Shown here piece after piece: positions 17,001 through 59,300 of a stretch of DNA of 64,000 nt (the first letter of the stretch is position 1; every line of letters begins with the position of its first letter). The notes below the pieces were generated by a model that saw only the letters and a program-made list of their open reading frames with translations, did not search any database and was not told the DNA's origin. The translations under genes and the position numbers were made by a program. Location of the stretch: NCBI GenBank assembly GCA_963402885.1, contig OY727099.1, forward strand, positions 27,051,001 to 27,115,000, written 5' to 3'. Origin of the DNA: Antedon bifida. Lineage: Eukaryota; Echinodermata; Crinoidea; Comatulida; Antedonidae.

Positions 17001-20000
17001 AATGTGTGTGCTAAACAACATATTATGTTGATTTTTAAAAATGTATTATGTTATATAAGAAAAAGTAGTCATTTATTATGCGATCTACAATTAAAATGAA
17101 AGACAGTAGGCATATTAGTAACCAAGATGGTATCAGTTATTAACACGGCCGCCGGTTGTACAGCACTAATTTAACACCAAATTATTATTATTATATTTTT
17201 ATGTATATTTTTTGTGTAGGAAAATAGTGCACTCAAAACGAGGCTGGACCAATCATTGGCTGGGCTAAACGAAACACAACAACTGTGCCTTCAATTACAA
17301 GATGAAACGGAACGGGAACGAGAATACTTCCAAAGGTAAGCCTACAATAACTTGTCTACCTTTGCGTCAATACGTCGTTACGTTCTAGTGGTGGTTCCCA
17401 CTAGAACGTAACGCAAGGACGTAAACGCAACGCAAGCGTTTTAACCAATGACAAGCGAAGTTATAGACAGTTAGCAATCACAAGCGAATAAGCCATCGCT
17501 TGTGATTGGTCAATTCACTTGCGTTGCGTTACGTCCTTGCGTTGCGTCGCTAGTGGGAACCACGCTTAAGCCTACAATAACTTATTGTACATCTTTGCGT
17601 CAATACCTCGTTGCGTTGCGTTACGTTGCGTCGCTAGTGGGAACCAAGCTTAAGCGTACATCTCAGAAAAACAGTGACAGATGAGAGCTGGTATATGGGA
17701 GACCAAATGAAATGTCACAGAGGAGTTAACGATTTAAACATGGAGAAACAGAACAGTAATATTAGCATTTACAAAGCACCTTTCCAAACAATTTCAAACA
17801 AAGATATCATTCCAATGTATTAACAACTGAAGACAAACACAGAACGTTATCCTAATAAAAACACTTTAACAAATCCTGTCAGATGCACAACTAGATCATT
17901 GACTCCACAATGATGAACATAATAACACATGCTTATATTTAGAATGATAATTGTACTAAGTACCAATCCTTGTATTAAGCCTCACCATGCTGATACTGAT
18001 GTAGATACTGACGGACACACCATCACAACACTCAACTCAATCAATCACTCCAAAACTGCCACACTGTGACGTAACTAACGGTATTAATCTCTGCACTTAA
18101 ACAGCAATAATACATCATATTTATGAACTATCTATATCAGTACAAGGAAAATGACAAATTGCTGACAAAATGACAATGCTGTGGTATCAGTGGCTGGATC
18201 TCAATGGAGATACAACTAAATAAGCAAAACATATACGTACCTACTCTGCTAATATAATATCCCATAATGCCTTTCATTAGCAACTTTATTTCATGACATG
18301 GTTATAGATATTATTTTAGTGATTGGAAGTCTATTCTATTTGACATGGTCGATATGTTTTTTTTTTTTATTAATTTAAGGGAATATGAAGAAGTTGTAAT
18401 AGAACACGAAAACAAACTCAGAGACAGACAACATTTGGAGTTACAACTTGAAAAACTAAGGTAAATGATGTTTGCGAAATTTTTGAAAAATCGCTTTAAT
18501 ACAAACACGTTTTATTATTTATAATGTTAATATCCACGTTTAAACTGTTTCAATGTGTTTCCAAATGTTAAAATAAATCTTTTAATGCGTCATTAAACAC
18601 AATTGCATCACCCAAAAAACGCGTCGCATGAATATGTCCCACAAATCTTAAAACGTGTCATAACGCATTTGTCATTACACCCATGATTTAATTTTTATTA
18701 TAAAAATATTGAATTACCAAACGTAATTTTATACTGCTTTAATGCGTTAGTTTTGCTTTCGTTTAATTTCAGAGAAAAATATGAAAGTTTGGTTGAAGAC
18801 AATTATCATAAAAGGTCGGAACCTAAAAAAGTTGGAGTTATGCAAATGAGCCGAGTCAGCAGTTTTAGTGACTGTGAGTGTGATCAACAGTTACAGGTTA
18901 GTTCAGTACTAAGTTCATACTTATTGTCTAATCAAACTGGTATATTAACAGTTACATGTTAGTTCAGTACTAAGTTCATACTTATTGTCTAATCAAACTG
19001 GTATATCAACAGTTACAGGTTAGTTCAGTACTAAGTTCATACTTATTGACTAAATCAAACTGGTATATCAACAGTTACATGTTAGTTCCTAATCAAACTG
19101 GTATATTAGATCTTGCTGAAACAAAACTTTTTCAAGACATTATACAGAAAAGAGTTTGGTTTGGTTCATAATACGAAATGCAACATTGCGAGATAGTATA
19201 ATCATATTTGGTGAATAGGTATAGAGTTTAAGATTCTTACTCGTTGAGTATCTTCTTAACTTTTAATCAAATATCTTATTTCATATTTCTGTTTTTTATC
19301 TGAAATATTCTTGATTTTGTTCATTTTGAAATATTTGATAAATATTCATGGAATTGAATACCCCTGAAGCGATATCATCCAAAATGATTCCAATCTTCTA
19401 TGTCTTAGTGAAGGTCGCTAAATGTCGTGCACGATGTGGATATAATATTTCAGAATGATAAATATTTAATGTATTACTGTATATATGAATTTTCGACGGT
19501 TAAAGGCGTGATATACCAATTGAATAGCGCAAGTTATGCGTACTGCACGGGTGAACGTTGAGTTGCTATATCGATAGAAACGCGAGTGCGCCCAGACGTA
19601 GATGCGTCACAAATGTCTACAACGCGTTTAATTAATTTATAATTAAATTATTAATGAACAGTCTAGACGCATTTCATGTGTTGTAATACTTTTCACATTG
19701 GAAATGTGTTATGAAAGAACTCGCAAAAAAAATATATAATTTATGAATTATTTCTTGTATTACGGCAACTTTATGGTCGGAAAATATAGCTTAAAGTTAT
19801 ATATTATAATATGCAATATTGCTTAAGCTCTGTCTACACTATCACACTTTATGTGAAAACAAAATTTGATGTGCCCATAAATGGACAGGATGATGTCATA
19901 TCACTACCATATTTGGGCACATCATACAATTTTTGTCAAACTAATTTGATAGTGTAGACAGAGCTTTAGTCAGACTGTCGCTTTAATTCGAAATTGTAGG

Positions 20001-23000
20001 CCTAAACTAAAATCTTCTATTTTTTTCCCTCAAAGTTTCTACAATTGAGGACACCAGATCGATGTTTTAAGATTGTGACGTGTGGAGATTCTGGTGTGGG
20101 CAAGTCTAGTTTTCTTCAGCGATTCTGTCACAACACGTTTACACCTAATACTCAAGTTACCATTGGTAAGAATGTTTACTTAAACTTTGAATTGAATAAT
20201 GACCGGTCAGTATAAGATAATTAAATCATTTACCAGAACATCCTATGATCAAAAAGCACAACCTCTGCATTGTGGGAAGGCTTAGATCAGATTCTGTTGA
20301 TTGGTAGAATGCTGAAATAGAAACAAATATATACAAATTATGATACCGCTACTTCACATTTTCTCTAAATGTTAACGTTTCCGTCAATTAATTCAACAAA
20401 AATATGGTATGGCACGAGGAATAGGACGATTATAAATATAGTATAAATATTCAAACCATGTTAACATACTTCCACAATCCAACATACATCAGCGTTGGTG
20501 CAAATTGATATTTTATGATATTGTAGGTTGGTTTTGTGGAAGTTGCTTATATCGTTAATTTCCTGGTGAAATTGTTTCTATTTTTGTTTTTTTGTATGAT
20601 TTTTATATGGATGTATTATCCGAAATAAAGGAAATGAATAAATTATTGAATAAATACAACTTGATATATTTGTTTACTTTGCACTTGTTTTTTACTTCGT
20701 ATTTCTTCCAGAAATTGGGTATCACATGAAGTCGTTAGTGTTGGACAATACGGTGGTTTCGTTGCAGATATGGGATACGGCTGGACAAGAAAGGTATGGG
20801 TCGTCTGATTGTTGTTTTTAGTGCTTCTTTTTATCGCGATGGACTAATGAAATAGGCCTATAGGATAACAACAGTATATACTTTTAAATAAAACAATATA
20901 AATAAACACCCGAACATTAATCGCTTCAAATGTGTCGATGTTTCATTGTCTCTAGTTCGAGTGGGTGTTCGATTAATTAATGTAAAGTGTTTGGCTGTCA
21001 ATGTAATGGTTTAAATGGAACAATAAGCAATATACCCGATAGTTCCATACCATTGTAAAACACTCATGCGGAGGCAACACTAATTTGGATAGAACACCTT
21101 TTGTCGTGTTTCATTATCTACTTACATAGATGTTGAATATTAGTTACAGCCTTAAGATATATAGTATATCCAGCACAAAGTGATATCGATCGAATTTCAC
21201 TTACATACAATTACGTCAAGTTTGTATTTAGGTGTAAAATGAGCGACGTGTTTTGTCATTCTTAGTAATCTGTGTAAAATAAGCATATTGATTAGTGCGA
21301 CCTATTTGCATTAGTAATTCCATTTGCAGAAATTGACCTAGGCCTATTTCCATTGTTTATTAAAGAAACGTTTTAACACCTGACAATATGATATCAAATA
21401 AGGTACAACCTTTTAAAGGTAAACTTGTACAGTAGAAAAATAAGATTGTTTTCAACGTATTTCTAGAAGCTAAAATCATTATCCATACAGCCTATACATC
21501 TAAATCGGTTTCGTAGTTTTAAGCCTGTTTTCCATTTGGTGAATTTATCCGCGTGAATCAAGCGCCTTGGCTAATGCGCATGTATATTTTTGATCTACTT
21601 TTTGTAACGTGAAAATTGCGGAGCCAATCAGAACTAAGTATTCGTTACGAATAATTACTACTCGCATTTTGATTGAACGACGATAACACGCAGAAATAAA
21701 CATACTTTACGCATTCTTACAAACCAACCTGCTGCGTAAAAAAAAGTAGCTGTGTAATAGTTATTATTAACGATTGATTATTAGTTTAGTTTAGACATGA
21801 AGTATAATTAAACATTGATTTATTTAATGTTCAATGATTTCCTTGGGTAGAAATGTTTTCTCTTAAGGGAAGAAGAAAGTACGAGTAATTTTAAGTTCAA
21901 ACGCCCGAGTCTATTTTGAAATAGCAGAATGGAATTAAGCTTGTTATCGCTTTCACATTAAGAGTGATTGATTTAAATAAAGTTTCACGATATTACGTGA
22001 GCTAAATTGAAAACTTGGCAAAACACGTACAAGCAATAGATAAATAGCATAATACGCAGTTCATTCAATTTCAGCAAATTCAGAATTAATGCTCAGATTT
22101 GGTTAAACTTTTCTGAATTCTATGTTTAACAGTACATAGGTTCATCATTTGTACGCGCGCGTGCAAAAACCGTACCATCATTATCATCGCACGCGTCATA
22201 TCGACTTCTGTACATTCACTAGTTATTTTTATGTTGTAGGTTTCGTAGTATACCACACGCCTACTTCCGCAAAGCAGATGGCGTGCTGCTTCTGTACGAC
22301 ATAGCTTGTATCAAGTCATTCATGAACGTGAAGGGATGGATTGCGCACATACGGGTAAGCTACGTCTGCAACTAACACTTTGTTTGCACTTGGACGCAAC
22401 ACAATGACGTCAGCGCGCGCCAATCACGACACGATGGATCATCTGAACTGTCACTTGTGATTGGTCAACCCACTTGAGTTGTGCCTATGTCGAAGTGGGA
22501 ACCATTGTGGTACTAGGACGCAGAGACGATGGGAACATACTGTGCAATTCTTTGCCAGCCAGCCATAAACGTGAACTTGTTTTAGAATTTAATAGCTGTA
22601 AATAAATCAAGACTAATATGATTATGTTGACTATACCACCTGTATGTAATTTATGATAGTATGAGCGTACGTAAACTGTTATCCGCTCTGCTGCTATAAA
22701 TAGTTTATACATCTTTTTATCTACATTGATTTCTTCCTCAACGTTCACTATTTATTTTGGTTAAACTTTGTTTAATGAGGTGACTCAAAACAGCCGAGGC
22801 TGACATGCATGAGGCCCTCAGCACAATGTTACCGAGAACTGCGACGTATATATTATTATTTGTAATATTATCTACTCTTCTTCATCGTTTTCACAGGAGG
22901 TTGACGAGAACGCGACGTTGTATATATTATTATTTGTTATATTATCTATTCTTCTTCATCGTTTTCACAGGAGGTTGACGAGAACGCCATACTCATGATA

Positions 23001-24527
23001 GTTGGTAATAAAGACGATTTAGCATCCAACTTTCGCGACGTGGAAACTGAAGTTGCTATGAAAATGGCAGAGGTAAGAATCTCACTTCTGTTAGGTTACT
23101 TGGGCGTGCCCACACGAATTTACTCCACATGTAGTAACTGTCCATATTCTATAGGAAACAGATCTTTATTTGAAGAAATATATAAATCATCATTATCGAT
23201 AAAAACGGAATTCAGACGCGGCTATCCTTTATGCAAATTGCACATACACATTATCGGCATCGACACAGCAATGTGATGATGGATTATGTTCCGTCGATTG
23301 TGCTAGGACTTCGGGGAAGCATGTCAGCCTGAATACATTATGCTGTTCCGTCGATTGTGCTAGGACTTCGGGGAAGCTGCATGTCAGCTTGAATACATTA
23401 TGTACTTATCGTATTTGACTTAACATTAAAGCATTAAAAGCTTTTATTTTAATATTTTTCCGAGTTTCTTTCTATTCACCAACATTCAAAATAAGGTCAC
23501 AGTTCACATCCATGCAGTCGTTAAAAAACATTTCCTCTCAATTTGAAACTTTACTGTAAAAAACATACAAAGTAGAAATATTTCACTTCGGTAATTTTTG
23601 AAAAAAACAGCTTTGAGAGAGCTCGACTGGATCTTAATTAAGATATACTATATTTTATAATTATTTTGTGAATATTCGATATTCAGTTGATTTCACCACG
23701 AATGCCAATATAACAGGAATATTTACCCGTGGGCATAAAAAAACGGTTTAATTTATAAGCGTGGGATTACATTGCATTATTATTCATGTGCCAAGACATC
23801 TCCTTTCTCACATCCCAATCACAAACTGGAATTAAGCTATAATACAGTTTTTTCTGATAACATTTGGTGACATTCTAGGATTTCATTCAAACCGAATAAC
23901 ATTTTTATTATTTTATAACCATTATATAAATACATTTTTTTGTGATATTGCTATCACATTTTTATGAAAATGAATCAACGGTTTTTATTTTCACTATTTA
24001 GTCAAATGTGTCTCCTCAATATATTAATTGTATATTATTACTTATGTAGGAAAATGATGGCTTGTTTATTGAGGCGAGTGCTAAAACAGGCAACAATATA
24101 TTTGAGGCGTTTGGTAAACTAGCAAGGTAAATCAAACATTTATAACTCTTTATTATTAGTATTTATTCAATAAGAATGGTTATGATAAACATGATTATGA
24201 TTTTAATAATTACAATGATTGAAGACAGTAATTATAATGATGGGTGTAAAAATGATAATGATTAACATGATACGATGAACTTTATACATGAACATACTCA
24301 GTTCACGCAGACGAATTAAATAATGCATTAATGACGTAAAGAACCGTCTGGAAATGACGTCACTAATGTCTAAAATGTTATAGCTTTTAAGCATGGCTTG
24401 ATACATAATACATTTCAGAGAGATTCAACGACGAGAAGATGATAATGTGAGTCGTGTATACACGTCAGTTGTGGACCTGAATCAAGAACTACCGTACATT
24501 AAGAAGTCAAGATGTTGCAAGAACTGA
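8060..24527 (+). CDS. RASEF-like: RASEF/Rab45-like coiled-coil Rab GTPase, 13 coding exons, 509 aa
   Basis: Exons: 8060-8202, 15126-15263, 16323-16500, 16819-16953, 17220-17335, 18380-18460, 18773-18896, 20036-20165, 20712-20793, 22240-22354, 22971-23072, 24050-24126, 24419-24527. Together they give 1530 nt in one frame with GT-AG borders and matching phases. The start is set by an in-frame stop at 8045. Residues about 50-95 ([16 protein letters not shown]) resemble the segment following the EF-hands in RASEF/CRACR2A proteins. About 105-300 is charged coiled coil ([15 protein letters not shown]). About 311-480 is a Rab domain: GDSGVGKSS at 322, WDTAGQE at 369, NKDD at 427, SAK at 458. It ends CCKN, a double-cysteine prenylation signal. 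Family role: membrane traffic, GTP switch plus self-association through the coiled coil. No EF-hands were found, and human RASEF, about 740 aa, has them. The effector loop is atypical (TIEIGY, not TIGVDF). Confidence 0.92.
8994..9212 (-). mobile_element. Fragment of a retrotransposon reverse-transcriptase C-terminus
   Basis: A 72-codon frame in intron 1 of the RASEF-like gene, antisense to it. The peptide has the tail pattern of many invertebrate non-LTR polyproteins: [18 protein letters not shown], then F-x-IP-x-x-KTERSKK, ending near a Trp. No polymerase motif is present upstream, so it is a 5'-truncated remnant. The assignment rests on a remembered family pattern, not on a search. Confidence 0.4.
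9919..10025. repeat. Hairpin repeat, MITE-like
   Basis: Left arm GCAAACTGCCTTAAAATACC then TTTCGAGAATG; right arm CATTCTCGAAA-like sequence (GTATTCTCGAAAC) then GGTATTATAAGGCAGTTTGC. About 45 bp arms with an AT-rich loop. A related fragment with CGAAACATGTCG and GAGGCAGTTTTAAC lies near 30917-30965. Confidence 0.65.
10606..10680. mobile_element. MITE family 2, right half only
   Basis: Carries CCTGTGATTGGTCAACTTAC, TTGCGTTGTG and GTTCTAGTGGG, which match the right half of the complete copy at 7570-7722. The left half is absent. Confidence 0.55.
12613..12950. repeat. Minisatellite, 35-36 bp unit, about nine copies
   Basis: Each unit is built on CAAGCGTAAATGCGGCGTC followed by AAGTACGCAATTACGT. 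It is CpG-rich: most units have four to six CpGs. Divergence rises toward the right end. Confidence 0.85.
13683..13776 (+). mobile_element. Retroelement 3' tail
   Basis: Ends TTGTCTGAAATAAAG followed by repeats of TTGAA, a common 3' end of invertebrate non-LTR elements. The preceding sequence (TTTATATGGACAG) resembles the tail at 20590-20650. Only the tail is present. Confidence 0.4.
15886..16090. repeat. Minisatellite, 31 bp unit, about six copies
   Basis: The unit contains GCGTTACGCCCTTTTGACGT then AATGTGTATG. The first four starts (15901, 15932, 15963, 15994) are exactly 31 apart; later units are diverged. It lies in intron 2 of the RASEF-like gene, about 230 bp before exon 3. Confidence 0.85.
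16528..16575. mobile_element. MITE family 2, right-end fragment
   Basis: TTGCGTCGCTAGTGGGAACC and ACGC are the right terminus of the family. It starts only 27 bp after the donor of RASEF exon 3 (16501). Confidence 0.6.
17337..17652. mobile_element. MITE family 2 copy flanked by a duplicated intron segment
   Basis: A full MITE spans about 17389-17571 (from GGTTCCCACTAG to CTAGTGGGAACCACGC). A second right end lies at about 17605-17652. The intron sequence TAAGCCTACAATAACTT, which begins within the exon 5 donor at 17337, recurs at 17566 after the MITE, followed both times by TTTGCGTCAATAC. A local duplication therefore involved the donor-proximal intron and the MITE end. Confidence 0.7.
18885..19109 (+). 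repeat. 61 bp tandem repeat that includes the RASEF exon 7 donor
   Basis: Repeat starts are at 18897, 18958, 19019 and 19081 (a partial unit). Each junction reads AACAGTTACA then G or T, then GTTAGTTC. The first is the real exon 7 end (CAACAGTTACAG) and its donor GTTAGT. Later copies reproduce the last 12 exonic bases and the donor; the copy at 19019 keeps the exact CAG/GTTAGT junction. Confidence 0.85.
19825..19966. mobile_element. MITE family 1 (Harbinger-like), copy 1
   Basis: Inverted ends AGCTCTGTCTACACTATCA and TGATAGTGTAGACAGAGCT (left has one change) with TTA on both sides. The body carries ATGTGCCCATA and TTTGGGCACAT. A three-base TTA/TAA target is the mark of PIF/Harbinger elements. 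It is the only copy left of 32 kb and lies 70 bp before RASEF exon 8. Confidence 0.8.
20036..24527 (+). CDS. RASEF-like: RASEF-like: exons 8-13 encoding the GTPase domain
   Basis: Exon 8 holds the P-loop and ends in switch I. Exon 9 starts with the odd TIEIGYHMK stretch and ends at WDTAGQER. Exon 10 ([21 protein letters not shown]) is the switch II to beta-4 region, diagnostic of RASEF/Rab. Exon 11 carries NKDD and has a duplicated acceptor. Exon 12 carries EASAKTG, and exon 13 the tail ending RCCKN and the stop at 24525. All catalytic and base-binding motifs are intact, so nucleotide binding is expected. Confidence 0.92.
20590..20650 (+). mobile_element. Retroelement 3' tail
   Basis: TTTTTATATGGATG then CCGAAATAAAGGAAATGAAT matches the tail design at 13683-13776. 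It lies in RASEF intron 8. Confidence 0.35.
22373..22508. mobile_element. MITE family 2, diverged copy
   Basis: Begins near TTTGCACTTGGACGCAAC and ends GTGGGAACCATTGTGG, with CCAATCACGAC and GTGATTGGTCAACC as inner inverted CCAAT motifs. It begins about 18 bp after the donor of RASEF exon 10 (22355). Confidence 0.6.
22840..22986 (+). repeat. 74 bp tandem duplication containing the RASEF exon 11 acceptor
   Basis: Two copies, 74 bp apart, share TTCTTCATCGTTTTCACAG then GAGGTTGACGAGAACGC. Both offer an intact polypyrimidine tract and CAG acceptor (exon starts 22897 or 22971). Only the second keeps the frame. Using the first adds 74 nt and meets a TGA shortly after CCATACTCA in the second copy. 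Confidence 0.9.
23288..23401. repeat. 57 bp tandem duplication in RASEF intron 11
   Basis: GTTCCGTCGATTGTGCTAGG recurs at 23288 and 23345, followed both times by ACTTCGGGGAAGC and GAATACATTATG. It is about 215 bp after the exon 11 donor, so it does not touch a splice site. Confidence 0.8.
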
Positions 24528-24776
24528 TCACCTTACGGTTAGCCTACGCAAATGTTACGTATATCAATTACAACCAATTGGTGTGGAACGTGTATATTAC
24601 AACATTGAGCGAGATTGGCAATTCACGCGTCATGCATATTCAATGAGGTAGATGACTCTAATAATGAATAATTCATGAGTTATTCATCGCCTGCCTACGA
24701 AAATAATATACACCAACGGGCATTACGTCATTATCACCCTCTCACACTTTGGCATCGACATCTCCAATCATCACCA

Positions 24777-24782
24777 AATAAA
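24777..24782 (+). other. Candidate poly(A) signal of the RASEF-like gene
   Basis: AATAAA lies 250 bp after the stop codon at 24527 and is followed by a T/G-rich stretch (TGTTGACGTTTTCC near 24805). It is the first such hexamer seen downstream of the stop. Confidence 0.5.
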
Positions 24783-25970: not shown

Positions 25971-25976
25971 CACCGT

Positions 25977-27785: not shown

Positions 27786-28518
27786 TTATTCAACCTCATA
27801 TATATCATTGACTTCTACCCCTCCTATAGCCCCAATCAGACCCTCTTCGTCCCCGTCTTCCTCCTCGTCCGTAATTTTCTTCAATTTTTCCATGGTAACC
27901 ATGTAGCTAAGATCCGTAAATGTTTGTTCCTCGCCGTCGTCGATGACTTTGGCGGGTCCTTGTGATACGCGATCGGAATCCATGGATCGACGATGGAATG
28001 CCACGACTACAGGTTCGCTGGTACCGGTTACGAATGTTGCTCGGTCCGAGTCTTCCTCTTCGGTCGTTGTTCGCCGCTTTCGTCTGCAATTTTAATTTTA
28101 AGGAATGAGTAATCCTGCTAACAAACAAACAAACACACGCGATCGACTGCATATAGCCCCTTGGCGGAGGTAAGTCCACATAACACAAAGCATATATCAT
28201 TTATAACATGTTTTCTAAATTTGACAGGGCCGGGCTACGATTTACTGTGTGCACACTAACCAGTGGAAGGCAATTATAAAGGAGGGCAATGTTACCACTG
28301 ATCTAGTCCTTCCTTCTGTATAGAAGACTAATCAATCCCAGTAATAACGACATACATAAACCAAACTGGAACTTAACCATACCTGTCGTATACATTATAT
28401 ACACACAAGCGTAAAGTACAGAGCCTTACCTCTTGTAAATGTATCCAAGAACGCCTGCTACGGCACAGATCATGCCTACAAATAGTAGGGAAATCCACCA
28501 ACGACCACTCACTGAATT
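27786..28518 (-). CDS. DSL ligand exons 6-7: membrane anchor and intracellular tail
   Basis: Exon 6 (28518-28430) encodes NSVSGRWW then a hydrophobic helix (ISLLFVGMICAVAGVLGYIY). The basic stop-transfer KRRKRR spans the junction. Exon 7 (28083-27786) is rich in Glu and Asp (KKITDEEEDGDEEG) and Thr. Lysines near the membrane could serve ubiquitin-dependent endocytosis, which DSL ligands need; this is inference. The stop codon overlaps AATAAA (positions 27790-27785). Confidence 0.9.
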
Positions 28519-31500
28519 CTGGAAAAAATATAACATACGTAACATGTCTTATTACTACTGTATTATTGTTTTGTTTTTCATTGATAATTTAATACATATG
28601 TGACAATATGTATGTTCTTGATATATTAGTACGGTGGCTCATAATGTAACATAGAAGTGGAAATCTCGTGATATATTAGTACGGTGGCCCATATGTAACA
28701 CAGCAATACCACCGTACTTAATAATGCTTACAGAAGTTATAGAAATAAACAAGGAATCCTTGACTTACCTCATCATTCAATTGATCTCGTAGCCTAATTG
28801 CAGCGCCACCACACGTCTTCCCAGACCAGCCATTAATACAGGTACACGACCAGTGGTTATCAGTCTCAATACATTGTCCTCCGTTTTGACACGGAGCTGA
28901 CGCACAACTATGTAACTTAACATCACAATCTTTACCAGCCCAACCCGGTAGGCATGTACATTTATATGATGCACCTTCGTTGATAGCGTGACAGGATAAG
29001 CTGTTTACACACGGAGATTTAATACATGGATCCATTAATAGATTACATTGATGTCCACCCCAACCGTATGGACACACGCATGTGTAATGATTACGACCGT
29101 GGTCACATGTACCATTATTTAAACAAGGTTCACTAAGACATTCGTTAAAGTCATGGTCACAATTTGGCCCTTCCCATCCCTGTCCACAAATCTTTTGACC
29201 GGTGACCTTGTTACAAGTGTAGTGACCACGTTCATCTGACCTCGGTACGCAATGCTTTATACAATTTTTGCCATAGTAATTGGCTTTGCAACCAACTCGA
29301 TATTTGATTTCCATTCTGAAAGAAAACAAAATATCATTACCAAAATATTGTTTCATGCAAAAGTACATCTTTTCACATATGCCTATGTGATCAATTCCTT
29401 AAATCTCTAGCGCGCAATGCGCACGACGCAGATCTTGCACACAACACGTGTCCTTCAAGCGTGCGATTTCCCACTACCACCGGCAAAAATCTTTCATACT
29501 TACACAGATCTCGCACCCTGTATCCTTCTAGCGTGCCAAACATTATCCAATGAGAACTTAATATTTTCATAATATTTATCCACTAAATCATGTCCAGATG
29601 TTGAATCTACGTCATAGACGACTCCTTTAAGTCGCATTCCTCCCTGTATCACGTGACAAATAAACAAATAACAAAATAATGAATTGAAAAAATCGATATA
29701 AACTTTACACGTATGATGGTAATATCAGGGTTAGCTTTGCGTCAGGGTGTTGGTCGGATGTTTTGCCCTACTCTGCATAAGCAAGCTCTCAATGCACTGC
29801 ACATTATTACCCCAGTCATTTTTTGGATCAAACACGTATGGAAACATACTCCCATAATGCAGCTAGTAATCAGCGCAAAGTTGTGTCTTGATCTAACCGG
29901 GTTCCCATTTATACACCTGGGTGGAGAGAGGCAAATGTAAGTAAAGCGTCTTGTCTAAGGATGCGGCGAGAGTTGGATATTCGAACTCAGGATCAGTAAT
30001 CCAACGTCCAGCACACTGCGCCACACACCCTCACATAGACCTGATGGGTACATTTCGCCGTGTCAGAGTATAAAACAAAAACTCGTTAAAATATTTAGAG
30101 GTATTATCATTGATTTGAATAATAAAATTATTAATTGGCATGTCATACCTGCCATGACGTCAGCGTAAACGACATCGGGTTACTGATCCTGTACGGAAGA
30201 ATAGGTGGAAAGTAGAAGTGATCGTTTCCATCGTAAATCTGAGCTGTGTCGATTTGACCAATAGAACATTTATTTAAATCCTTTGACCTATAAAAAAAAT
30301 TGAAAGAAAAAAATTAATTAAAATAATTAAAGAAATAAAAGTTTGATTAATATCGGTGTTGTTTACCGAATGGTACCCAACCTTTCGGTTTGAGTGGCAG
30401 CTGCGTCATTAGAGGTGCAGCGATGGTATCGATACTATTTCATTTTCGCATCTCCTCCTCTCCGACGACCTCATTATATGCCCCCTTGACGTGTCATAAT
30501 TGTCAATACTGATCTAGGATGTAACCAATTAGATGCGTCATCATCGTCATGGTTGCCTGACTGAACTTAGAGTACGCGATGATTCAAATGATTAAATCAA
30601 CATCCCGGTAAAATAACAAAAAATAAAAGTTAAATATTCATCGTTATACCGATATTATTATTATATTAATTTATAAGAATTCGCCGAATTTTTAAAAATC
30701 TTTTAAGATTTATGTGTTTAAAAACACATAACCCTGATAATAATGTCCAGTAAAGTAACTTGGTAATTGTGATGATAATGATGAACTTGCTTACGTAATG
30801 ATAATGACGTATGCCTACGTACGTTCCCATCTAAGTAGACTGCATTATGAACCTGTTACTTGTGATAATGAAAATGACGTCATGCCTAAAGTACGTTCCC
30901 ATATTCCAATCCTAGGCTCGAAACATGTCGTATTAATATACTTATATTGAGGCAGTTTTAACTTGATTTTTATTTTGATTTAAACATTATGAACCGTTAC
31001 TTGTGATAATGATAATGACGTCATGCCTATTTACGCTACAATTATGTCCATCCAAGTCTACATTACGAACGCCGTGTTACGTGTGATAATGACGTCATGC
31101 CTATTTACGCTACAATTATGTCCATCCAAGTAGGCTACATTACGAACGTCGTATTACGTGTGATAATGATAATGACGTCATGCCTACTTACGATCCAATA
31201 TGTCCATCTAAGCAAATAACAAACTTGTTATCACAATCATTGGAACAAGAGAAACTCCTAATATGGTCGCAACAACTACCATCGTAATCTTTGCTTTCTG
31301 GATTTGAATAATGGTGTAATTTGAATTGAAGTTCAATCTCACTTGATACGTCATCAAACACCTGTATGTAAATTAAACGTGAAATTACAATATTTCGATA
31401 TTAATTACGTCATCAAATGATGCTTTTCCCCTAGTGATTCAATTTAGGAAGTAGACGTCAAGTTCTTAATGTTAATATGGTTGTCGATAACATAATAATG

Positions 31501-32220
31501 TTAATGTTTTACAGTTAAATTAGGTACCTTTTAATTAAATAAAATATTTTATTTGAAATTTATAAATACATATTTGGCGTACTGCTAATGTTCGGTAATT
31601 TATTAAAATCCAAACGCTTCCTATGATTCATGAACGTGACGTCATTTCCGATCTTTTTATAGTTTCAAAATGTTGCTTATCGGAACAATGTCAACTAATG
31701 AAGGACATTAAACATGGGGATACATGAACATGTTGCTCTCACATCGTCACGGTCATGGGAAGCAATCAATCTATTTAATTATAATTGTGTTAATAATGAT
31801 AATTTTTGATTAATATGTACATTTTATATCAAATTACTATATTAGTAGTATATTTATTATGTTTATTTACATACGTATTGGGGCCTAATGTCCAATGGTG
31901 TACCGTGGATACCACCGGTGGTAACGCAGTTACATTTGATTGGACAGTTGACAGTTTGCGCGTCACTGCGCGCGTTCACGTCACTTGTTGGATTAATTTA
32001 CTTACGAGCCGGGTTAAACATACGTCCCTTATCTTACTAAAGCTAAAAATGTTTCAATCTTAAGTCTGCAATATCAAACACCAATTCGTTATCTATTACA
32101 GTAAGAAACTATTGATGACAAGACTTATGTATCTAAAAACATAAAACAACATTAAAAAGTACATACCTGAGAAAATAAACATACTAAGACGAAGATCTGA
32201 TTGATTGTTGGATAAAACAT
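27786..32220 (-). CDS. DSL-family Notch ligand with three EGF repeats, 7 coding exons, 478 aa
   Basis: Exons, 5' to 3': 32220-32167, 31361-31192, 30287-30149, 29643-29504, 29315-28769, 28518-28430, 28083-27786; 1437 nt in one frame with GT-AG borders. Residues 1-18 are a signal peptide (IFVLVCLF). About 20-167 is the N-terminal C2-like MNNL region (ELQFKLHHY, CC, then C-x5-C-x3-C-x6-C). 177-220 is the DSL domain with six cysteines and GHYTC. EGF repeats end at C258, C298 and C336. A membrane segment is at about 357-378, then KRRKRR, and an acidic tail of about 95 residues ending EVNDIYEVE. Family role: cell-surface ligand that activates Notch on the next cell. Typical Delta proteins carry about 8-9 EGF repeats and Jagged about 16, so this is an unusually short form. 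It has no clear Delta or Jagged PDZ tail and no cysteine-rich domain, so I do not assign a subfamily. Confidence 0.93.
28769..29315 (-). CDS. DSL ligand exon 5: DSL domain and all three EGF repeats in one exon
   Basis: This single 547-nt exon codes V168 to E350. The DSL cysteines are C177, C186, C190, C202, C211 and C220. EGF1 (CLNNGTC) and EGF2 (CVNSLSC) fit the O-fucose pattern C-x4-S/T-C; EGF3 (CQNGGQC) does not. After EGF3 only 14 residues remain before the exon that starts the membrane anchor, so there is no hidden room for more EGF repeats. Confidence 0.93.
29710..30033 (-). mobile_element. tRNA-derived SINE in the DSL ligand gene
   Basis: On the - strand, from 30033 down, the head has an A-box-like TGGCGCAGTGTGCTGG and a B-box GAGTTCGAATATCC. 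The body includes TGGGAACCCGGTTAG and an inverted-complement core (CACCTGGGTGGAGAGAGG on the + strand) of the type widespread in invertebrate SINEs. It sits in the intron between exons 3 and 4, in the same orientation as the gene. Confidence 0.7.
30775..31215. repeat. Irregular tandem array overlapping the DSL exon 2 donor
   Basis: TGACG(TC)ATGCC cores lie at 30805, 30875, 31016, 31090 and 31173, each followed by TACG or TTACG and ATGTCCATC or GTTCCCATC, then AAGTAG and CATTA(C/T)GAAC. About 90 bp of other sequence (30901-30990) interrupts it. The right-most unit covers the end of exon 2: on the - strand GACATATTGGATC then GTAAGTAGGCATGACGTCA. Confidence 0.8.
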
Positions 32221-47300: not shown

Positions 47301-50300
47301 TCAAATAATAATATAATATGTCATTATATTAATTCATATGAATTGTTAAGCTCTGTCTACACTATCAAATTTTATGTAACAAAAAAATGTGATGTGCCCA
47401 TATATGGACATGCTGATGTTATATCACCAACATATTTGGGTGCATTTTTTTGGGTCAAACTAGTTTGATAGTGTAGACAGAGCCTAAGAATAAAATTACT
47501 GAAACCACAGAATATAAACCATGGTGCACAAGACTGATTGAAACATGATAAAGTAGATCATTATTTGATCATTTGATAGAGTGCATACCTTTTGGTCTTT
47601 CTTTGTACTGGCCCGCTGACCCATCATCTTTGCCGCTGTATTGAGATGCAAGCGTGGAGTCACTGTAGTTAGGATTGCTTGTGGCTGAGTGAACATAAAC
47701 AGATTTGATTGATTGAAGATTGATTGATTTGGTAGAATACGTATCTTCACATTATTACTAAGCAGCTTTATAGCGGAGCAGTATAGATTGTTTCTTTGTT
47801 GAAATAATACATTTAAACAGAAGTAAATCAAGATAGCCTGGTACTGCCATAGAACATTCCAGAGATTCACTTTTTGCTCCAAAAGATGTCCTTAATAATT
47901 AATCGTTGTTTGTGTATCATTCATAGTTTAAACAGCAAGTCAGTGACTGCTGAATGTCTTAAAGAATATGACAGTTAATTCAGAAGAATGCATACTCCAA
48001 ACAAACTGTATGGTGTTAGTATACAGTTCCCAGACAGTAATTATAAGAAATAGATTGTAGGCCTGACATGTAACTAACCTGTAGGTGCTGCACCTATAGG
48101 AGCCGAAGCCTGCCTTGCTGCTTGGCTCTTAGGACTTGTTGCTGACCTCGGTAACGTTCCCGTCTTTAATCCCATTGGATTGAACACCGTCTCTTCCCAT
48201 CCATCCTTCTTGTACAGCGCCCTCAAGTCACGGAAGCCCCACATGGTAAACAGCACCTGGTTCGCAGCTTTCACTACGTTAGCTGGATATTGTTTGGATT
48301 TTGAAATCGTTACTAACCGCTCAATACCGTTTGCATCTCGTAATGACCTACAGACAAAAAAGATTTTTATTTTTAGAAAGATTGATTTGGCACTATAAAC
48401 AAACAAAGCATACATAATTATATCACTGTATATTCATTTAAAAATTTCACATCAAAACATGCTTAATTGCGTATGAATGACAAAAAATAATTGCATATAA
48501 AAATAATCGACACACAAGTACAAATAAAAAAGTCAAGAAAAAAATAAAACAATTTATTGAAAGATACCAAAGACCAGACATAATATTGTACTTAGACCAT
48601 GAAGTCCATGCTTAGACTTACTTAGCATTTTCCATATTCTTTGAGATGACTTCTAATAGTGCTGTGAGGATTGCTAGTGTACTCTCATCTGATAGCTTGG
48701 TATCGTTAACACCGCCACCTGGAAGCCTTGATACTAAGTCACGCATCGCATATTTACCTAAATCATAATATGGTAATATTTATAGATATAATGGTATTTT
48801 ATAGAAAGATTCAACATTACATACAAAGAATTTAAAACATAGCAACCAGTGGCTGAAATATGGTTTTTACAATGCATTTTAATTAATAGGAAAAATTTGA
48901 GAAACTTGGAACATTACAAACATTTGAGTTTTTGAAAGAATTGCAAAATTTAAAGTTCACTTTTGTGATAGTTAACTGCATAGCCTAGATAAAAATGAAT
49001 GCAAAAATAAAACTTAACAAGCAAAATATATTACACCAATGATTGCATTTCATACCTATGAGTTCTTTATTCCTTGGGTCTATGGATAAGTTCCTCAGAG
49101 CTAATGCAACAGCCTTGACAACTCGTTCTTTATCCATTCGTAGTAATTCAACAAGAACCGGAAGACCTTTTTCTTTGCGTACTGATGCACGGATGTAACC
49201 AGCCCACTACAAACAAAGTCAGTTAGAAGTTTAAAAACAAGCAAGAAAAGGAGGAAAAATGTGTTATTCTGTATTTAATTTAACATATAAAATATCTTTT
49301 CAACTACCTATATATATTCTTTGGCAGAATTGCATTGTCACCTCTAGCAGACTTTTAACTTAAAGCTCTGTCTACACTATCAAACTAGTTTGCCGAAATA
49401 TGGTAGTAATATGACCAAATATGGTAGTGCTATGACATTATCATGTCCATATATGGGCACATCACATTTGTTTGTCACAAAGTTTGATAGTGTAGACATT
49501 AGGCATAATATATAATTGTCTCACAAACCTTCCATTCTCCTGCTGAAATGTTCTGAAGTGTTCCAGCTGACGCCTCTAATGTGACTGGGTTTGAACAATT
49601 TGACAATATCAACAAGTATGGCTTGATAACCTCTGGTTGCCATAGTAATTCTGCACCTTTTGCTGGAGTTTTCCTTTCAGGAAACTCTAAGTATTGGTCA
49701 TGTGACTGTTTACTACAAAATAAGAAAAAAAAAAATTGATACATAACATATATAAAATAGATAAAATTAGTAGTAATAAGTAGTAAATAGTAATTTATTA
49801 GTATTACATATCAGTATAAACAACTAAGTATCAAAAGCAATTAGATTTTATAAAAATAAATACAATAAGTTTATAATTTACAATATTTATAAATAAACCA
49901 CCAAATATGGAACAGTAAGTCACCTGGTAAGTATCTAATATATTTAAACTTAAAGTCACTATAAAACATTTTATTGAAAATAAAACTCAACAACTAATTA
50001 TCTAATGTAGAGCATGTTAAACTTGATAACAAGATGAAATTTCAAACGCTATAAGCGGAAAGAAGCTGTTAAGCATGTATAACATATTCTAAGCACGTAC
50101 TTAACAATGTCTTAACAATCAATTATCTTAGTCTCAGACTCACCTTAATGTTCCAGATTTTGTAAGTGTTCCAGTTTTTCCTCCTTCTTTTCCATTTTTC
50201 TTTGTTGATGGGAAGCAACCAGCTTTCTTGGCTAAAAAAAATATGTGTGTTTAATCCCTCATTAAATATGTACAAAACAAGTTATCCATTTAAAGATTTC

Positions 50301-53300
50301 CAAGTTACTTCATAAATATATTATGCAGTTTCATTAAGCATCTGTTTAAGTGATTCTTACATTAATGTAATGTAATAGTACAGATTTCTAATGTTCATTC
50401 ATGCACTGATTCATGCATTTTAAGTGTAATGTAAAACTATTATCATTTACATAATATAGATCTAAATTGAGTCATACAATCTTAGAAGCAATAAGTCCTC
50501 TTTCTGTGGATGCACAGGTGAACTATTACTACTACAGTAGTTAGTTTAAGTACCGAAACTTATAACCAACCAAACTTTAAGCTCTGTCTACACTATCAAA
50601 CTAGTTTGACAAAAAAAGTGTGATGTGCCCAAATATGGTAGTGATTTTCCCAAATATATGGGCACATCACATTTGTTGTCAGTTTGATAGTGTAGACAGG
50701 GCTTTAGAGAAAACAAAATATAAACAGTGATCATAAGTTGTGGAAACATTGGGTTGAAAAGAAAGGTAGACAGAAACCTAATACAATAACAAACCATCCT
50801 GCCCTATGTTCTGCCCTATGGTCTGCCCTATGGTTTGTCCCATTATTGTGTTCCCCTAACTTGTGTGTACATACCATCCTTAGGAGCTGGTTTTTTAAGA
50901 GTGCCATCTTTCCTAAGTGTTTTATCTGGTATTGCGTCAGGATGGTTGGCCTCATAAGCAATCTTGAACGATAAATTCCTTAAAATACATGCGGCATTCT
51001 CAACAACCTAATAAAAACAAATAATTTGTCACTGATAAACGAAACAAAAATAATTGCCGTGAAAAAACATCAGACAAGCTGTGATTGAAGGTAAACATAA
51101 ATGCTGGGTATGTATACACATTCATGTCCATGACATATTTGATTATTTTACCATTGTGGGCAACAGAAAATCTGCTCACTATTTTTTTTTATCCGAATGG
51201 TAAAGTCAACACAAGCCTATTGGTTTATTCAAAATATACATGTAAAACAAAATAAGTCCGCAATCAAATATTTCCAGAAAAAAATGAATTCTGATAGTGA
51301 CATTTTAAAATGCTTCACATGTCATTACATTCTATGTATAATGATGTATTCTGTAAAGCGCTACATTGAAAATAAATTAAATGTGCTTTAAGTATATTCC
51401 TAAGTAACTGAAATCCATTATCACAAATTCTCAATGTGTGCGAGATCTTGAGAATAACTGTGTTTTGCACAGAGCTGTTATAGTAATACACATCATTTAG
51501 TTTTAGGTCAAGACACACAGTTTTCATATATTAATATACACATTATAATTTATCGCTAAGTTTATTTCTTTGGTTGTTAAATTTATATTATACTCTCTAT
51601 CTCTTTATATATATCTTTGTATACTGAATTTAATTTAACGCGCCTTCAGCACTCTTGGGTTGTATGTGTGCTATAAAAATTCATATTATTATTATTTAGG
51701 AATCTCAATTTATATGAAATTAGACATACAAATTGTACTGCATAAGACATTATTTAAAAAAAAATTGTTATCACCATTATCACATTAATTTAGCATAAAA
51801 AATTGATAGATTTAAAAGAATTCTCGCATTTTACAAAAACATACAAACAAAGCAACAACATTACATATCAATAATTAAATATCCAGAACATTTTACTCAA
51901 ATGCAATGAATGAATTATTGAATGTTGTCAAGTGGAATAGTATGTTTGTTTGATAAACGACATTTGGATTAATGTCTGAATTTGAAGCATCAATGTGTCG
52001 TCAACATTCATCAAAGTATTATAATAAGCTACTTCACATTTCTCTATGTAATGTGTTCAATTTCAATAATACCAAGCTTTCGTTCTGTGACTGTAGACGA
52101 AAGATGACCGTTAAATCGACCGAATACAGTGCCGGTAGTGAATGGAACAGTGTATACTGGGCTTATTTGCTTTTTGTATAAATTACCGTATCCTTCATCT
52201 AACATCCTGAATGACAGATGCCTTATAACTTGAAATCAAATCCATCCATCACGTACAATACAGAAATAATTAACTACATTTTTAAAAAAGAATGTTTGGT
52301 ACAGAAGGGTAGTAAAAGAAACAAGTCTTCTTTTCTATTAAAATTGTTTTATTTTTATATTTTATATGAATTAGACCAATAAAGGATGAATTTATTGAAT
52401 CTATAAATGAAATTTAAACTTCATATTTACCTTATTGTCCATTTCATTGCTTCTTGTTGCAACCAATAACACATAGTAGAATGAATCCACAAAACCTTCA
52501 CATTCTCTCATCTTCTTTCTTGTGTCTGTGTCTGCTGAGCTTACATTTCTAAAGCAATTTGAAAAATAAAAACATTTTACATTTTTATTTGAGCAAACCA
52601 TCATGAGTTATACTACTTGCAAATTGTTTCTGTATTTTTATATAATGCCAAATAAAAATCAATCAAAAATCAATAAATCTCCAATGGGTAATGATAGTTT
52701 TTACTAGATTTGCTCAGACTAAAGCTCTGTCTACACTATCAAACCGTGTGATATGCCCAAATACGGTAGTGATATGAAATCATCATGTATGAGAACATCA
52801 CATTTATTTTTCACATAAAGTTTGATAGTTAGACAGAGCTTAACAAACTGGATTGGCAGTAGTCGGGTATGGTGACTTCCAATGTACATTTTAACATAAT
52901 CCAAATAGCATATTATTATCCAAATAAGGTAACTTGCTCTTTGTAGATAAATGGAAAACTAAGTATCTACCTTAAGCATCCTGATGTATTTTTGAATATT
53001 GTATTCCACTGCTGGTCCATCATTCTGACGTCTCGCACATTGCCAGGCCATCCAGAGTGCGGTATTACAATGCGCTTTGTCAGCACCGTTAACCCATCAT
53101 CTACTATAGCTTTTTTCAATACCTAGTGGGGAATCATACAACAAATAGTTATAAAACATAAATAATTTTCTTTTTCTTCTCCTTTACCATCAGTTTGTGA
53201 TTTTATTACTTTAAAAAAATATTAAAACTTAAACTTAGGAATTCGTCATCAGTTTTGTTTTTCACCGATTGATATCTAAACAATTGAAACCTACTACTGA

Positions 53301-56300
53301 ACAACTAAGTTAGACTTACATCTGTTGAGGATAAGTTCCACAATGTGCCTGTAACCATTTCATAGATCTGTAGGAACAAATTACAAACATGTTGAATGAA
53401 CTTAAGAATATCACATTAAATATACTGGTGCTTTTCATTCATATCAAGAAAGTTTACTAATTTCAATAATATCAAAATAACAATACATATGATAGAATTA
53501 AGACATTTTAAAGACCATCCTGTAAAAGAAAACAAAAATTCTATGAGTCACTTCTATGAAACTTCTGTTAAAACAGGAATACTTCATTGCAAACAAGATG
53601 GAACCAATAATGTAAGTTTGTTATCTTGGTCAATATTGCTTGTTATATTGTAATGTAAAAGTGGTCATTAGTTGAAACCTACCTCTGGATCCTCAGTGTT
53701 TCTTAATTGGCGAATCAGTGATGGTATTCCGCCGGCGTTCTTGATGGCTATTTTGTTTTCTCGATTTGCTTTGCCGTAAGAGATGTTTCTGAGGGCACCG
53801 CATACACTTCTACTTATTTCTAGGTTGTCATGCGTAATGAGATTCACAAGGGCTGGTATTCCACCTAATCCTCTGTTAAATTAAACAAATTAACAATTTT
53901 TTACGTATGAAGTATGAAATGTGTAGCAAAAAGAACCTCCACAAAGCTCAGAGGCCCCCTATACATTTAATATCCTTACACACACAAAAGACAATGTTGT
54001 GGTATGGTTAAACAAGGTAAAGGGATATGTTGCCATCTTTGTTCTTCTCTGTTCATACCTTGTTTTTAAAGTATAATTGTTTATTTATTACTTTATCTTT
54101 CTGTGTTTTTGCTTTCTGTGATTTTTTATCCTCAATTTGCTTATATTTTACTGTTTATTTTGATTTTAATTGTCATTGAGAAAAGGGAAATAAATCTTAA
54201 ATTGAATTTGGTTGAACAATAAGGTTAACATAAATTTAATAACCTACAAATAAAATTTATTTTTATGTGAAAAGCATTTGACATTGGATTGATAAAGTTA
54301 CATGGTAAAATCAGTAGAATGAGTCTCCTGAGCCTCTTATCTATATCGTCTTACAGCACAGAATATTGTTAATATAATGTTTAAAGCACCTTGTTTTATT
54401 CTTTAACCCATCATCTCCATATGTCAGATGTTGTAGGTAGGCTGCAGCATTTGCTACGATAGCTTGATCGCGATGACCCAGATACTCTATGACCTCTTGT
54501 AAGTCTGGTGCCCGTAGTCCTGGTGAATAAAAATAAGAATTACTTAGATCTCATTTTATGTTGTCTAATTAGATAATATATTAGTTGAAATGAAAACAAC
54601 AATGGTATTAGGAACTAAGATTGTACTTTGATGCATTAAAGCATCTTTTGAGGATAATGGATCTGTTGTGAATCTATATTTTGCCATCATCATTAGCAAT
54701 GAAAGGAACATTGATTTTAATGAAATAAATGTTGGAAATATCGAATCCCATAAAACACTCTTTTAGTTTCAATAACATTGTGAATATCTACATGGTGATA
54801 ATGTTTTATGCCTTATATAACTGAGACAACCAACATTTATTAACACAAAAATAAGAAAATAATGATAAATAAACCAAATTAATATTGAATAATAAAAGAA
54901 CAAAAGTATAATAAAATAAAGCTATAAAGAAAAGCAAATCAAGCATTATGCATGGAATGATATAAAAACATACATGTCTAAAGCTCATTTACTTATGAGT
55001 TATTCCTCTAGGTTCTTGACATTAACATAATATTTTAAAATGTTTCACTAACACTCCACCAGACACAATATGTGTTCATTTCCATAGACTTAAAAAATGG
55101 TACACAACATGATCATAATGCATTGTGAATACTGAATGCATTGACAGCAGATTGAAAGAAATGAGAGTTCCATTACAAAGATTCCTGCACCAATTTCAAA
55201 ACCTTATAGATACCTTGTAAACAAATATTGTATAATTATAACAAGACAATATTCAAATGTCAACATTTAAGATTCGTAGAGGTTGAAAAAAAATTGCTTG
55301 CACCATTTATTCAAACCTTACCTCTCGTAAACAAATACATTTTTTCAAAATAAGCTGAAAAAAGACATCAATCACATGATTTAAACGACTTAAGTATTCA
55401 TTAGAATAAGATGAATCATAGAGAGTGGCTTAAAGACTTTGTGTCATCCAATCCATTAAAGACAACTCAATCTAATAATCTATCTTAACCCCACTGCCAT
55501 GGAGTTCGTTCATTGTACTTAAGCAACTATCTTAATTTTTAAAACTAGTTGGTAAAACATCCGTACTGTATCTATACTAAGTATGAATTGTTGCTGGCAT
55601 ATCTAGAGCAAGTGTTAACTTAAATGTCAACATTCAGATGCATTACTACAAGCTATGCTACAAACATGTTTCAAAACCATTTTCATGACAAAATGTTATA
55701 TTAGTGGATTGTGATCGAATCTGGCTTTAGCACGTAGGAGAATGGAAAGGCTTTCAATTCTAGTTACTTTCTAACAATATTTCAGTCACTTTTATTGCCA
55801 AGAAAAACCAGTAAAAATAGATTTAAGACAAACTTATAAAATGGTAATATTAATTAGCATGAAGCTCAACATAGTGGTGATACATTCAGACATGTTATCT
55901 CTCATTCAATGATGAAGGTTATGTGTTGGGATACGCCAACATTCATGGAATGTACTATTATCTGATAGGGGTGTTTAATAAAACTATATAATAATTTGAG
56001 TTGTAGCTCTCTTCTCGGAGAGAATAGGCTAATGTAGGTTTATCCAAGTAAGCTAGGCACGAAATAGACACATGTAATGTGTTTGGTAACACCACATATT
56101 ACAATTAGTCTAAAAAGTGAAAATGCTTTGATGAAAAAAAAACAACATGGTTTGTCGCCTTCCTTCTTCATTTTTAATCTTCTTGGACATCAATATAGTT
56201 GATTATTTTTAATTAATTATTTTATTAACTAGATTTGAAATAATTACTTACTTAATTACGTCAACACTTATCGTAATCTCTTCGTAAGTTCATCTTAATT

Positions 56301-59300
56301 TGAGGCCGGTTATTATAAATTTCAGTTTTTAATGACCTTAACACCTGCTAACTTACTGCAGTGAAAGAACTAATTTTTATCTTGTCAATAAATAAATGCA
56401 GTCACGGTTGATTTTTGATACCTTACAAGCTAAAAAATAGTGAAACCACAGAAATATTTGACTATTATAATTTACATTTAATCTATTGTCTAATAAATAC
56501 AAAAAAAATACATCTAAGTTAACACGGAATGGATAATAAGCACGATAAGTTTCAGAATTTCTGTGTATACAACATTCATAGCAAAAGGCAGTTATGTATA
56601 CCAAAGGGTTTATGTATAATTCATAATAAGTAATATTAATACATGGTGGTCAATATTGGATTAGCCACTGTTCAGAATATTCATAGCAAGAGCAGCTTAT
56701 TTGCTCTAGGCTTCCACGTACACGGTCATCAGCTAGTATCTATAATCTACTATGATGGTCAATTTAGATGGAGTTGTTTTCAATTTGTTTAATATCAATT
56801 TCATTTTTAATCTTTATTTTCATCTGCTTTACTACATTTCATCATTTTATTACAAGTTCATATGAATCATCAACAATTTCAGAATTCATTTAAAATGATG
56901 ACATGTAATTTCATGTCTGTTTTCTCTTCATGAAAGCAAGAGAATAAGCTAGAATAATATTAAAATGTGTTTGAATCGAACAGAACATGATATAGTAGCC
57001 CTATCACTTTTAAATATTAAATAGCAAATGTTTTCTAATTGCAAGGACACTTAATAGTAATATCTGTTTGCTGTCCATTTCACATTTTACAATTTGTGTG
57101 GAGATTCTCTTTGGAGTCGCTCTAAGTAAAGTATGACTACCATTTTTAGCTCTGGATAGTTACTAACTACTTCATTATTAATATTTGTATTTATTTAAGT
57201 TATTTGTTTATAAACTTGTATTCTATATGTATTGGCTATTAGGTATAATAAGTATTAAAATGATTATTTTATTGTGTACAAATTTATTGTATGATTAGTG
57301 TTAGCTCAGTTTCGATGTGTTCTTGCATGGCTGATTTACAGTTTGGGGCAGTTTGGAGAGGGAAAGGAGTCATCTTGTGCACTTTGCTGTACAACTGTAC
57401 TAACTAGTAATACTGTATTATTATAAGTACAAATACTGATTACTAAAGGCATGGAGTTGACTGCAAGTACTAGCAATGAATGTGTTATCACAGTGGACTG
57501 GATTGAACACATGCTACATTTACATTTTCTGTTATGAGCTTAGTATCTACTTATCACTGTACAAATATTATCACAAATTTAGCAAGTATAAGGGCGCCAA
57601 GCTCCATTGATAACTGAATAAGAACTGATACAATAAGCACAAATACCAATGCTTATTTTAGGTACTTGAATCAGGGCGCCAAGCTCCATTGATAACTTAG
57701 CCAGGACCGATACAATAAGCACAACTACCAATGCTTATTTTAAGTACCTGATTCAGTGTCTTTTAGTGATGCATTACTGGGGGTGTTCACAACTGTATGC
57801 TTGTTTTTTAATATCGCAACAGGAGCTACTTTCTTTGATAACACATGTGTAGGTGTGGTCTTTGATGAAATGGGATTGGCAGTTGATAATACATGTGTGG
57901 GCGTTGCCTTTGATGAAATGGGCGTGGCAGTTGCTAATACATGTGTAGATGTTGCCTTTGATGAAATGGGCGTGGCAGTTGCTACTTCTTTAATGCTTTC
58001 CATTCGCTTATTTTGACCTTTTCTCTTATTTGTTTTTGCTTATAAAAATAATAAACTTAATCAAATAATTCACAAAAAGAAAATATTAAACTGAACCTAT
58101 GATAATAAATCCAATCATAACTACAAATACAAAATATATTAATATTCAATACAATTAAAGGGACAATCCTATTAAGGGGACAACCATATTAAACTCATAT
58201 ATATATAAACTTTCTTGTGGAAGGAAAAAGAGGAAATATGTGGAAATCTTCCTGTCAAAGGAATGAGAAGAAACACACTATGTTTTAACACTACGACATG
58301 TGGACACCCCTAATAAGTGGACACTTTGTTGGGACCTGAAGTGGTTTTAGTGTATTATCAAAATGACTATGGATCTTTACCTTTTTCAGGGTGTAAGAAG
58401 GGTAGGTTGTCCTGGCTTTCTCTTGGGTCCATACTGGCAAGAGGTGCTGAATCCATTGTAGTTGGATCATACGTGTCTCCTAAAAAAGACAAACAATAAA
58501 CACACCATTACAAAACAAGAATTATCATTAATCCGTTGGAAATAGAGGACATGGTTGAATGAATATTAGCTAAATCAAATACGTAGATAAAATATTCTTG
58601 TAAGTTTATCACAGCAATAAAAATATGGATGATCTGTAAATGACCTTTGAAATAGTTTTTATGACTATTTTAGTCTTAAACACACATACTGTACATACAT
58701 GTTTTGCAATGCCACTAGCAATAATATTCTGTTATTTTGTAATCACTTTTAAGCAATTTTAAGATTAAAGTACAAACTCAGGTAAAAGCCCAATATCTTG
58801 AGTTCTAGAGATTTGCTTAATCAAGGAACAAATGTATGCTGTTATAAATTGGAATGTTTTAAGTAAAAATGACACTGGGACGAGGAGATTATTCCAAGGG
58901 TAGGAGATAACAGTGTAACACTGAAAACACTGTTTTCTTGTACAATAAATTGCTTACTAACTATTGTAGTATGACGACAAACAATGATGTCATTTACATT
59001 ATTGTTATTTACGTTATTATTCCTGAATCAAAGATTGTAACACAATTTATACCTACACAACACAATATGTCAATGTTTCAAAGAGTTTTAAGTACAAAAG
59101 ATACAGCTACTGCAGCTCACCACATACAGTATAATAATACTACTTTACAGCATAATGCTAACACTCCTATAAGGTCAGCTCAGTACTCAACTTTATGTAT
59201 TATTCCAAAGACAATAAAGAAATCATCAAAATTCCAACACAATTCAAAGTAACACAATTCATAAGAAAGTTTTAAGTATGAACAACTAAACTGGGTTAAT

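What the first reader, a model, noticed from the sequence alone, without database searches (positions are those of the whole stretch)
18885..57754. Recurrent tandem duplications that straddle exon-intron junctions
Five short tandem repeats begin or end a few to some tens of bases inside a coding exon and so copy a real splice site: RASEF exon 7 donor (61 bp unit), RASEF exon 11 acceptor (74 bp), DSL exon 2 donor (about 70-85 bp), INTS11 exon 16 donor (91 bp) and catenin exon 6 donor (82 bp). A sixth (RASEF exon 5 donor) copies sequence starting inside the donor. There are 61 coding exons in the window, so this is about one in ten. Coincidence with random intron duplications seems unlikely because few other duplications of this size occur in the introns. 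A local mechanism acting at junctions, or selection keeping decoy splice sites, would be new to me. The junctions and units are seen directly; the mechanism is inference.
Basis: partly seen in the sequence, partly recalled or inferred. Interest (0 to 1): 0.82.

Follow-up and report, generated by a model that had tools for sequence, protein, structure and literature searches.

The report
Short tandem duplications crossing splice junctions
Five short head-to-tail DNA duplications in this animal gene cluster really do copy a splice site, but the extra copies look like ordinary, decaying mutations, and whether they gather at exon edges more than chance allows cannot be settled from one window.

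Summary
The five duplications are real and each copies a splice site of the gene model: RASEF exon 7 donor, RASEF exon 11 acceptor, DSL exon 2 donor, INTS11 donor, delta-catenin-like donor. The models (58 exons, 110 junctions) rest on reading frame and, for two genes, on solved-structure matches. The sixth is a weak, separate case flanking a transposon-like element.

Chance: counted as events of one unit length, 5 of 10 duplications with 45-100 bp units straddle a junction against 1.01 expected (P 0.0016); other counts give P up to 0.045. Counted by site, 5 of 110 junctions lie in locally duplicated DNA against 92 of 1500 random intron points: no excess. The test is post hoc, on one window.

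Mechanism: ordinary short tandem duplication, tolerated because one splice site stays in place. Decoys show no sign of being kept: splice-motif copies differ at 8 of 86 positions, other intronic positions at 18 of 309. All eight decoys tested would shift the frame. A boundary-crossing duplication is already published in potato (PMC4974935). A junction hotspot is possible but unproven.

The parts
18883..19088 (+). RASEF exon 7 donor array, unit 61 bp (14 exonic + 47 intronic), 3.4 copies; real donor after 18896, copies after 18957, 19018, 19080
22846..22987 (+). RASEF exon 11 acceptor array, unit 74 bp (68 bp match at 97%); real exon start 22971, decoy 22897; upstream flank 22825-22845 resembles the exon start
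30984..31212 (-). DSL exon 2 donor array, units 74-83 bp, old (82% matches in relaxed TRF); real donor after 31192, copies after 31109 and 31035; similar fragments continue to about 30845
34693..34874 (-). INTS11 donor array (exon 14 of 18 found), unit 91 bp (48 exonic + 43 intronic), 2 copies differing at 2 sites; real donor after 34827, copy after 34736
57588..57756 (-). Delta-catenin-like exon 5 (of 20 found) donor array, unit 82 bp, 88% identical; real donor after 57748, weakened copy after 57666
17337..17617 (+).
8060..24527 (+). RASEF gene, 13 exons modelled (exon 1 tentative)
27786..32220 (-). DSL-domain Notch-ligand-like gene, 7 exons, open from ATG to stop
33583..39690 (-). INTS11 gene, 18 exons modelled, first exon not found
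44364..63153 (-). Armadillo-repeat delta-catenin-like gene, 20 exons modelled, 5' end not found

Best explanation
These are independent, ordinary short tandem duplications of 61-91 bp, made by break repair with fill-in and end joining or by slippage between short matches. They happened to span a splice junction. They persist because such an event leaves one intact splice site next to intact coding sequence, so the other copy falls into the intron and is nearly neutral; duplications wholly inside exons are purged unless in frame. Afterwards the intronic copies drift. Shown: the copies, their positions, phase and divergence. Inferred: the repair route and neutrality. Any excess at junctions may be chance, or partly because one copy is held constant by coding constraint and stays detectable longer.
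For: Copy identity runs from 98% (INTS11) to 88% (catenin) and lower in DSL, so the events have different ages. Exact matches at breakpoints are short or absent, in straddling arrays (catenin 3+2 bp; INTS11 0; RASEF11 0 in the TRF register) as in intergenic ones (25407 4 bp, 25903 3 bp); RASEF11 has a GAGAAC match between exon and upstream intron near the breakpoint. Copies of splice motifs differ at 8 of 86 positions, other intronic positions at 18 of 309. All eight decoys tested add a length not divisible by 3, and each shifted frame meets a premature stop. Of 18 arrays examined, the one wholly inside an exon has a 48-bp, in-frame unit. By site, 5 of 110 junctions versus 92 of 1500 intron points lie in duplicated DNA at score 50. 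PMC8355091 (passages) calls small tandem duplications the commonest insertions under 100 bp in the human genome and shows a break-repair origin in mouse cells.
Against: Counted as events of unit length, straddling duplications are about 3 to 5 times commoner than expected: 5 of 10 versus 1.01 (P 0.0016), genic only 5 of 8 versus 1.17 (P 0.0024); the most cautious variant is 4 of 11 versus 1.45 (P 0.045). With exon and intron shares of the units entered by hand, coding bases (156 of 7917, 2.0%) and junctions (5 of 110, 4.5%) lie in duplicated units more often than intron bases (379 of 37884, 1.0%). Longer detectability of constrained copies probably does not explain a fourfold excess.
Confidence: 0.78

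Rival explanations
1. Exon-intron junctions are a mutational hotspot for 60-90 bp duplications, for example through paired nicks or breaks at R-loops, paused polymerase or nucleosome edges at exons.
For: Event-based excess of about 3-5 fold, P 0.0016 to 0.045 depending on counting.
Against: Post hoc, one window, five events; no excess by site; the breakpoints that could be measured look alike in straddling and intergenic arrays; the exonic share of the unit varies from 6 to 48 bp, with no fixed breakpoint relative to the junction.
Confidence: 0.12
2. Selection keeps the extra splice sites as decoys, for alternative or unproductive splicing.
For: Three decoys score as high as the real site: INTS11 10.8 both, RASEF11 5.7 both, RASEF7 copy 3 9.0 both. 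All would give frameshifted messages, as unproductive splicing needs.
Against: The equal ones are in young arrays; DSL (8.0 to 5.9), catenin (4.8 to 2.1) and RASEF7 copies 2 and 4 (9.0 to 4.3) are weaker; motif copies diverge no less than neighbouring intron.
Confidence: 0.05
3. Assembly artefacts: false duplicates.
For: No reads were available; INTS11 and RASEF11 copies differ at only 2 sites each.
Against: Every copy compared differs from the real one, by 1 to 11 substitutions, some with gaps, and identities are graded across four genes.
Confidence: 0.05

Closest known systems
Boundary-crossing tandem duplication in the potato RdRp gene (PMC4974935; abstract, Introduction, Results and Discussion read)
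   Same: A short tandem duplication crosses an intron-exon boundary and copies the acceptor, as in RASEF exon 11.
   Different: In potato the copy became a new intron with RNA support; here the protein reads through the original junctions and no new intron is predicted.
[quoted passage not shown]
   Same: Tandem duplication in a gene supplies extra splice signals.
   Different: The model needs an exonic AGGT copied to give both ends of a new intron; here an existing junction is copied and only the intron lengthens.
Small tandem duplications from break repair (PMC8355091, passages seen)
   Same: Adjacent direct copies under 100 bp with little or no microhomology.
   Different: Those are induced breaks in cultured mouse and human cells; here the origin is inferred.

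Membership tests
Short tandem duplication (generic) | Adjacent direct copies of local DNA, unit under about 100 bp | tested here: met
Short tandem duplication (generic) | Breakpoints with short or no microhomology | tested here: inconclusive
   0 to 5 bp exact in catenin, INTS11, RASEF11 and two intergenic arrays; the RASEF7 row measures an internal copy border on one side, and DSL was not measured. GAGAAC near-breakpoint match in RASEF11
Short tandem duplication (generic) | Placement independent of splice junctions | tested here: inconclusive
   event-based P 0.0016-0.045, whole-array P 0.039-0.35, site-based no excess
Tandem-duplication intron gain (Rogers model) | Exon-internal AGGT copied, new intron between the copies | tested here: not met
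   Units contain an existing junction; the gene models join exons at the original junctions without a new intron
Boundary-crossing duplication as in potato RdRp | Duplicated unit crosses an intron-exon boundary | tested here: met
Boundary-crossing duplication as in potato RdRp | New intron spliced in RNA | not testable with these tools
   no RNA data
Conserved decoy or poison splice site | Splice motif conserved above surrounding intron | tested here: not met
   8/86 versus 18/309 differences between copies; pairs pooled and partly non-independent

The most novel reading that the evidence does not exclude
Exon-intron junctions in this lineage are a local hotspot for 60-90 bp tandem duplications, perhaps because nicks or breaks fall at the edges of exon-bound nucleosomes or at co-transcriptional R-loops, so introns grow by repeatedly copying their own splice sites.
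Probability: 0.12. Interest if true: 0.7.

Novelty: new member of a known kind. Interest (0 to 1): 0.27.

Why it matters
If junctions were a duplication hotspot it would link DNA breakage to gene structure and give a steady source of extra splice sites, from which alternative sites or new introns can arise, as in the potato case. If not, the window still gives clear examples at graded ages of how a gene tolerates a copied splice site and how the copy decays.

Tried and rejected
Whole-array shuffling was considered as the null and set aside as the main test: a duplication copies a junction only if the ancestral unit contained it, so unit length is the right size; both are reported. A second look for older junction copies, with 60-bp junction-centred windows against 400 bp of flank, gave only the five known cases at score 38 or more; at 34 the RASEF exon 5 donor and at 32 one catenin junction (44534) are added. 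In the unit-length tests DSL2 was given a unit of 78. The similarity at 17537 and three AT-rich low-identity arrays (46899, 51528, 56774) were left out of the main count and added in a variant, and DSL2 was dropped in another. In one search the pooled divergence counts include related copies (RASEF7 c2 and c4, DSL c2 and c3), so they are not independent; RASEF7 c4 was compared over 22 bases only; its microhomology row for RASEF7 compares two inner copies on the right side and is not used.

A relative of INTS11 was sought in viral contigs and none was found. Paper searches run: seven. Listings were capped: one search showed 15 of 50 papers, 15 of 114, 15 of 226, 12 of 21. One search (six phrases on duplicated splice sites) listed 3 papers, none opened. 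PMC2809761 and PMC11718197 were seen as passages only. Gao and Lynch 2009 is not held. Among the titles shown none was a genome-wide test of tandem duplications against splice junctions; that is no proof that none exists.

Full report
What is there. The window holds four animal genes: RASEF on the + strand, and on the - strand a DSL-domain Notch-ligand-like gene, INTS11 and an armadillo-repeat delta-catenin-like gene. I built the exon models by hand from the sequence and checked phases and splice sites by script. Pfam finds DSL and MNNL domains, a Ras domain and Arm repeats in the parts submitted. Solved-structure searches match Integrator subunit 11 across the duplicated exon end and the next exon (7e-21) and the RASEF Rab domain across the exon 11 start (4e-46). 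The models have 58 exons and 110 junctions. DSL, INTS11 and catenin read without internal stops. RASEF exon 1 does not join exon 2 in frame, so it is tentative; exons 2 to 13 agree by phase when the lengths are added by hand from exon 2.

The duplications. TRF lists the five arrays, a shift-match scan finds them too, and relaxed TRF extends the DSL array to 30984-31212, across the exon 2 end. In three shuffled windows the shift scan gave at most a score of 15 against a threshold of 22, and relaxed TRF gave no array of period 40-200. Splice-site scores from a matrix built on the window's own 54 donors and 56 acceptors are, real versus copies: RASEF7 9.0 versus 4.3, 9.0, 4.3; RASEF11 5.7 versus 5.7; DSL2 8.0 versus 5.9, 5.9; INTS11 10.8 versus 10.8; catenin 4.8 versus 2.1. 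The real sites were part of the training set. Other, non-copy donor-like sites also score in these introns, for example 10.6 at 34652 in INTS11.

Is it more than chance? The answer depends on the counting. As events of unit length, 5 of 10 duplications with 45-100 bp units straddle a junction against 1.01 expected over the window (P 0.0016), and 5 of 8 against 1.17 within genes (P 0.0024). With all units, 5 of 18 against 1.33 (P 0.0077) and 5 of 12 against 1.38 (P 0.0069). Dropping the old DSL array gives P 0.0076 (window) and 0.0097 (genic); adding four further weak arrays gives 0.0072 and 0.0148; both changes together give 0.026 and 0.045. If whole arrays are shuffled instead, P is 0.039 to 0.35. 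By site, 5 of 110 junction-centred 60-mers have a strong local copy against 92 of 1500 intron-centred ones at score 50; at score 30 it is 7 of 110 against 120 of 1500. The intron points include the intronic copies of the same straddling arrays and short-unit arrays, so this test leans against an excess, while the event test was posed after seeing the data. I conclude that an excess is suggested, not established.

How it most likely works. The arrays have different identities and so different ages, and the breakpoints that could be measured resemble those of intergenic duplications: 0 to 5 bp of exact match (RASEF7 and DSL not properly measured). In RASEF exon 11 the exon and the upstream intron share GAGAAC next to the breakpoint. 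This fits ordinary break repair or slippage. PMC8355091 (passages) describes small tandem duplications as the commonest insertions under 100 bp in the human genome and shows a fill-in and end-joining route in mouse cells. A duplication over a junction leaves a working site beside the exon and puts the spare copy in the intron, so it should be tolerated (inference); inside an exon it must keep frame, and the one such array among the 18 examined has a 48-bp unit.

Are the decoys kept? Between copies, splice motifs differ at 8 of 86 positions, other intronic positions at 18 of 309, other exonic positions at 9 of 133 (pairs partly related). That shows no conservation of decoys. All eight decoys tested add a length not divisible by three and the shifted frame meets a premature stop. 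Whether they are ever used needs RNA.

Comparison with what is known. A tandem duplication crossing an intron-exon boundary was published for a potato RdRp gene, where it made a new intron; [quoted passage not shown] The kind is therefore known. The classical AGGT intron-gain model is not met here. The open point is only frequency, which needs the genome; eight attempts to reach it did not complete.

Noticed in passing
window 57835-57984: The catenin-like exon that ends at a duplicated donor also holds a coding 48-bp (16 aa) repeat, about three copies, so two repeats lie within 100 bp of each other.
   Followed up: partly
window 19826-19967, 35160-35310, 38040-38170, 39000-39140, 49370-49500 and others: A family of short elements with ends like AGCTCTGTCTACACTATCAAAC sits in several introns; some hold a 15-21 bp internal repeat (TRF rows at 35168, 38067, 45772, 49396). 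Coordinates read by eye.
   Followed up: no
   Followed up: partly
window 22825-22845: Sequence just upstream of the RASEF exon 11 array resembles the exon 11 start (CGAGAAC and GCGAC), perhaps a remnant of a third, older copy or the matching site used to make the duplication.
   Followed up: partly
window 18883-19088: RASEF7 copies alternate CAG, CAT, CAG, CAT before the GT, suggesting the array grew once by a two-unit step.
   Followed up: no
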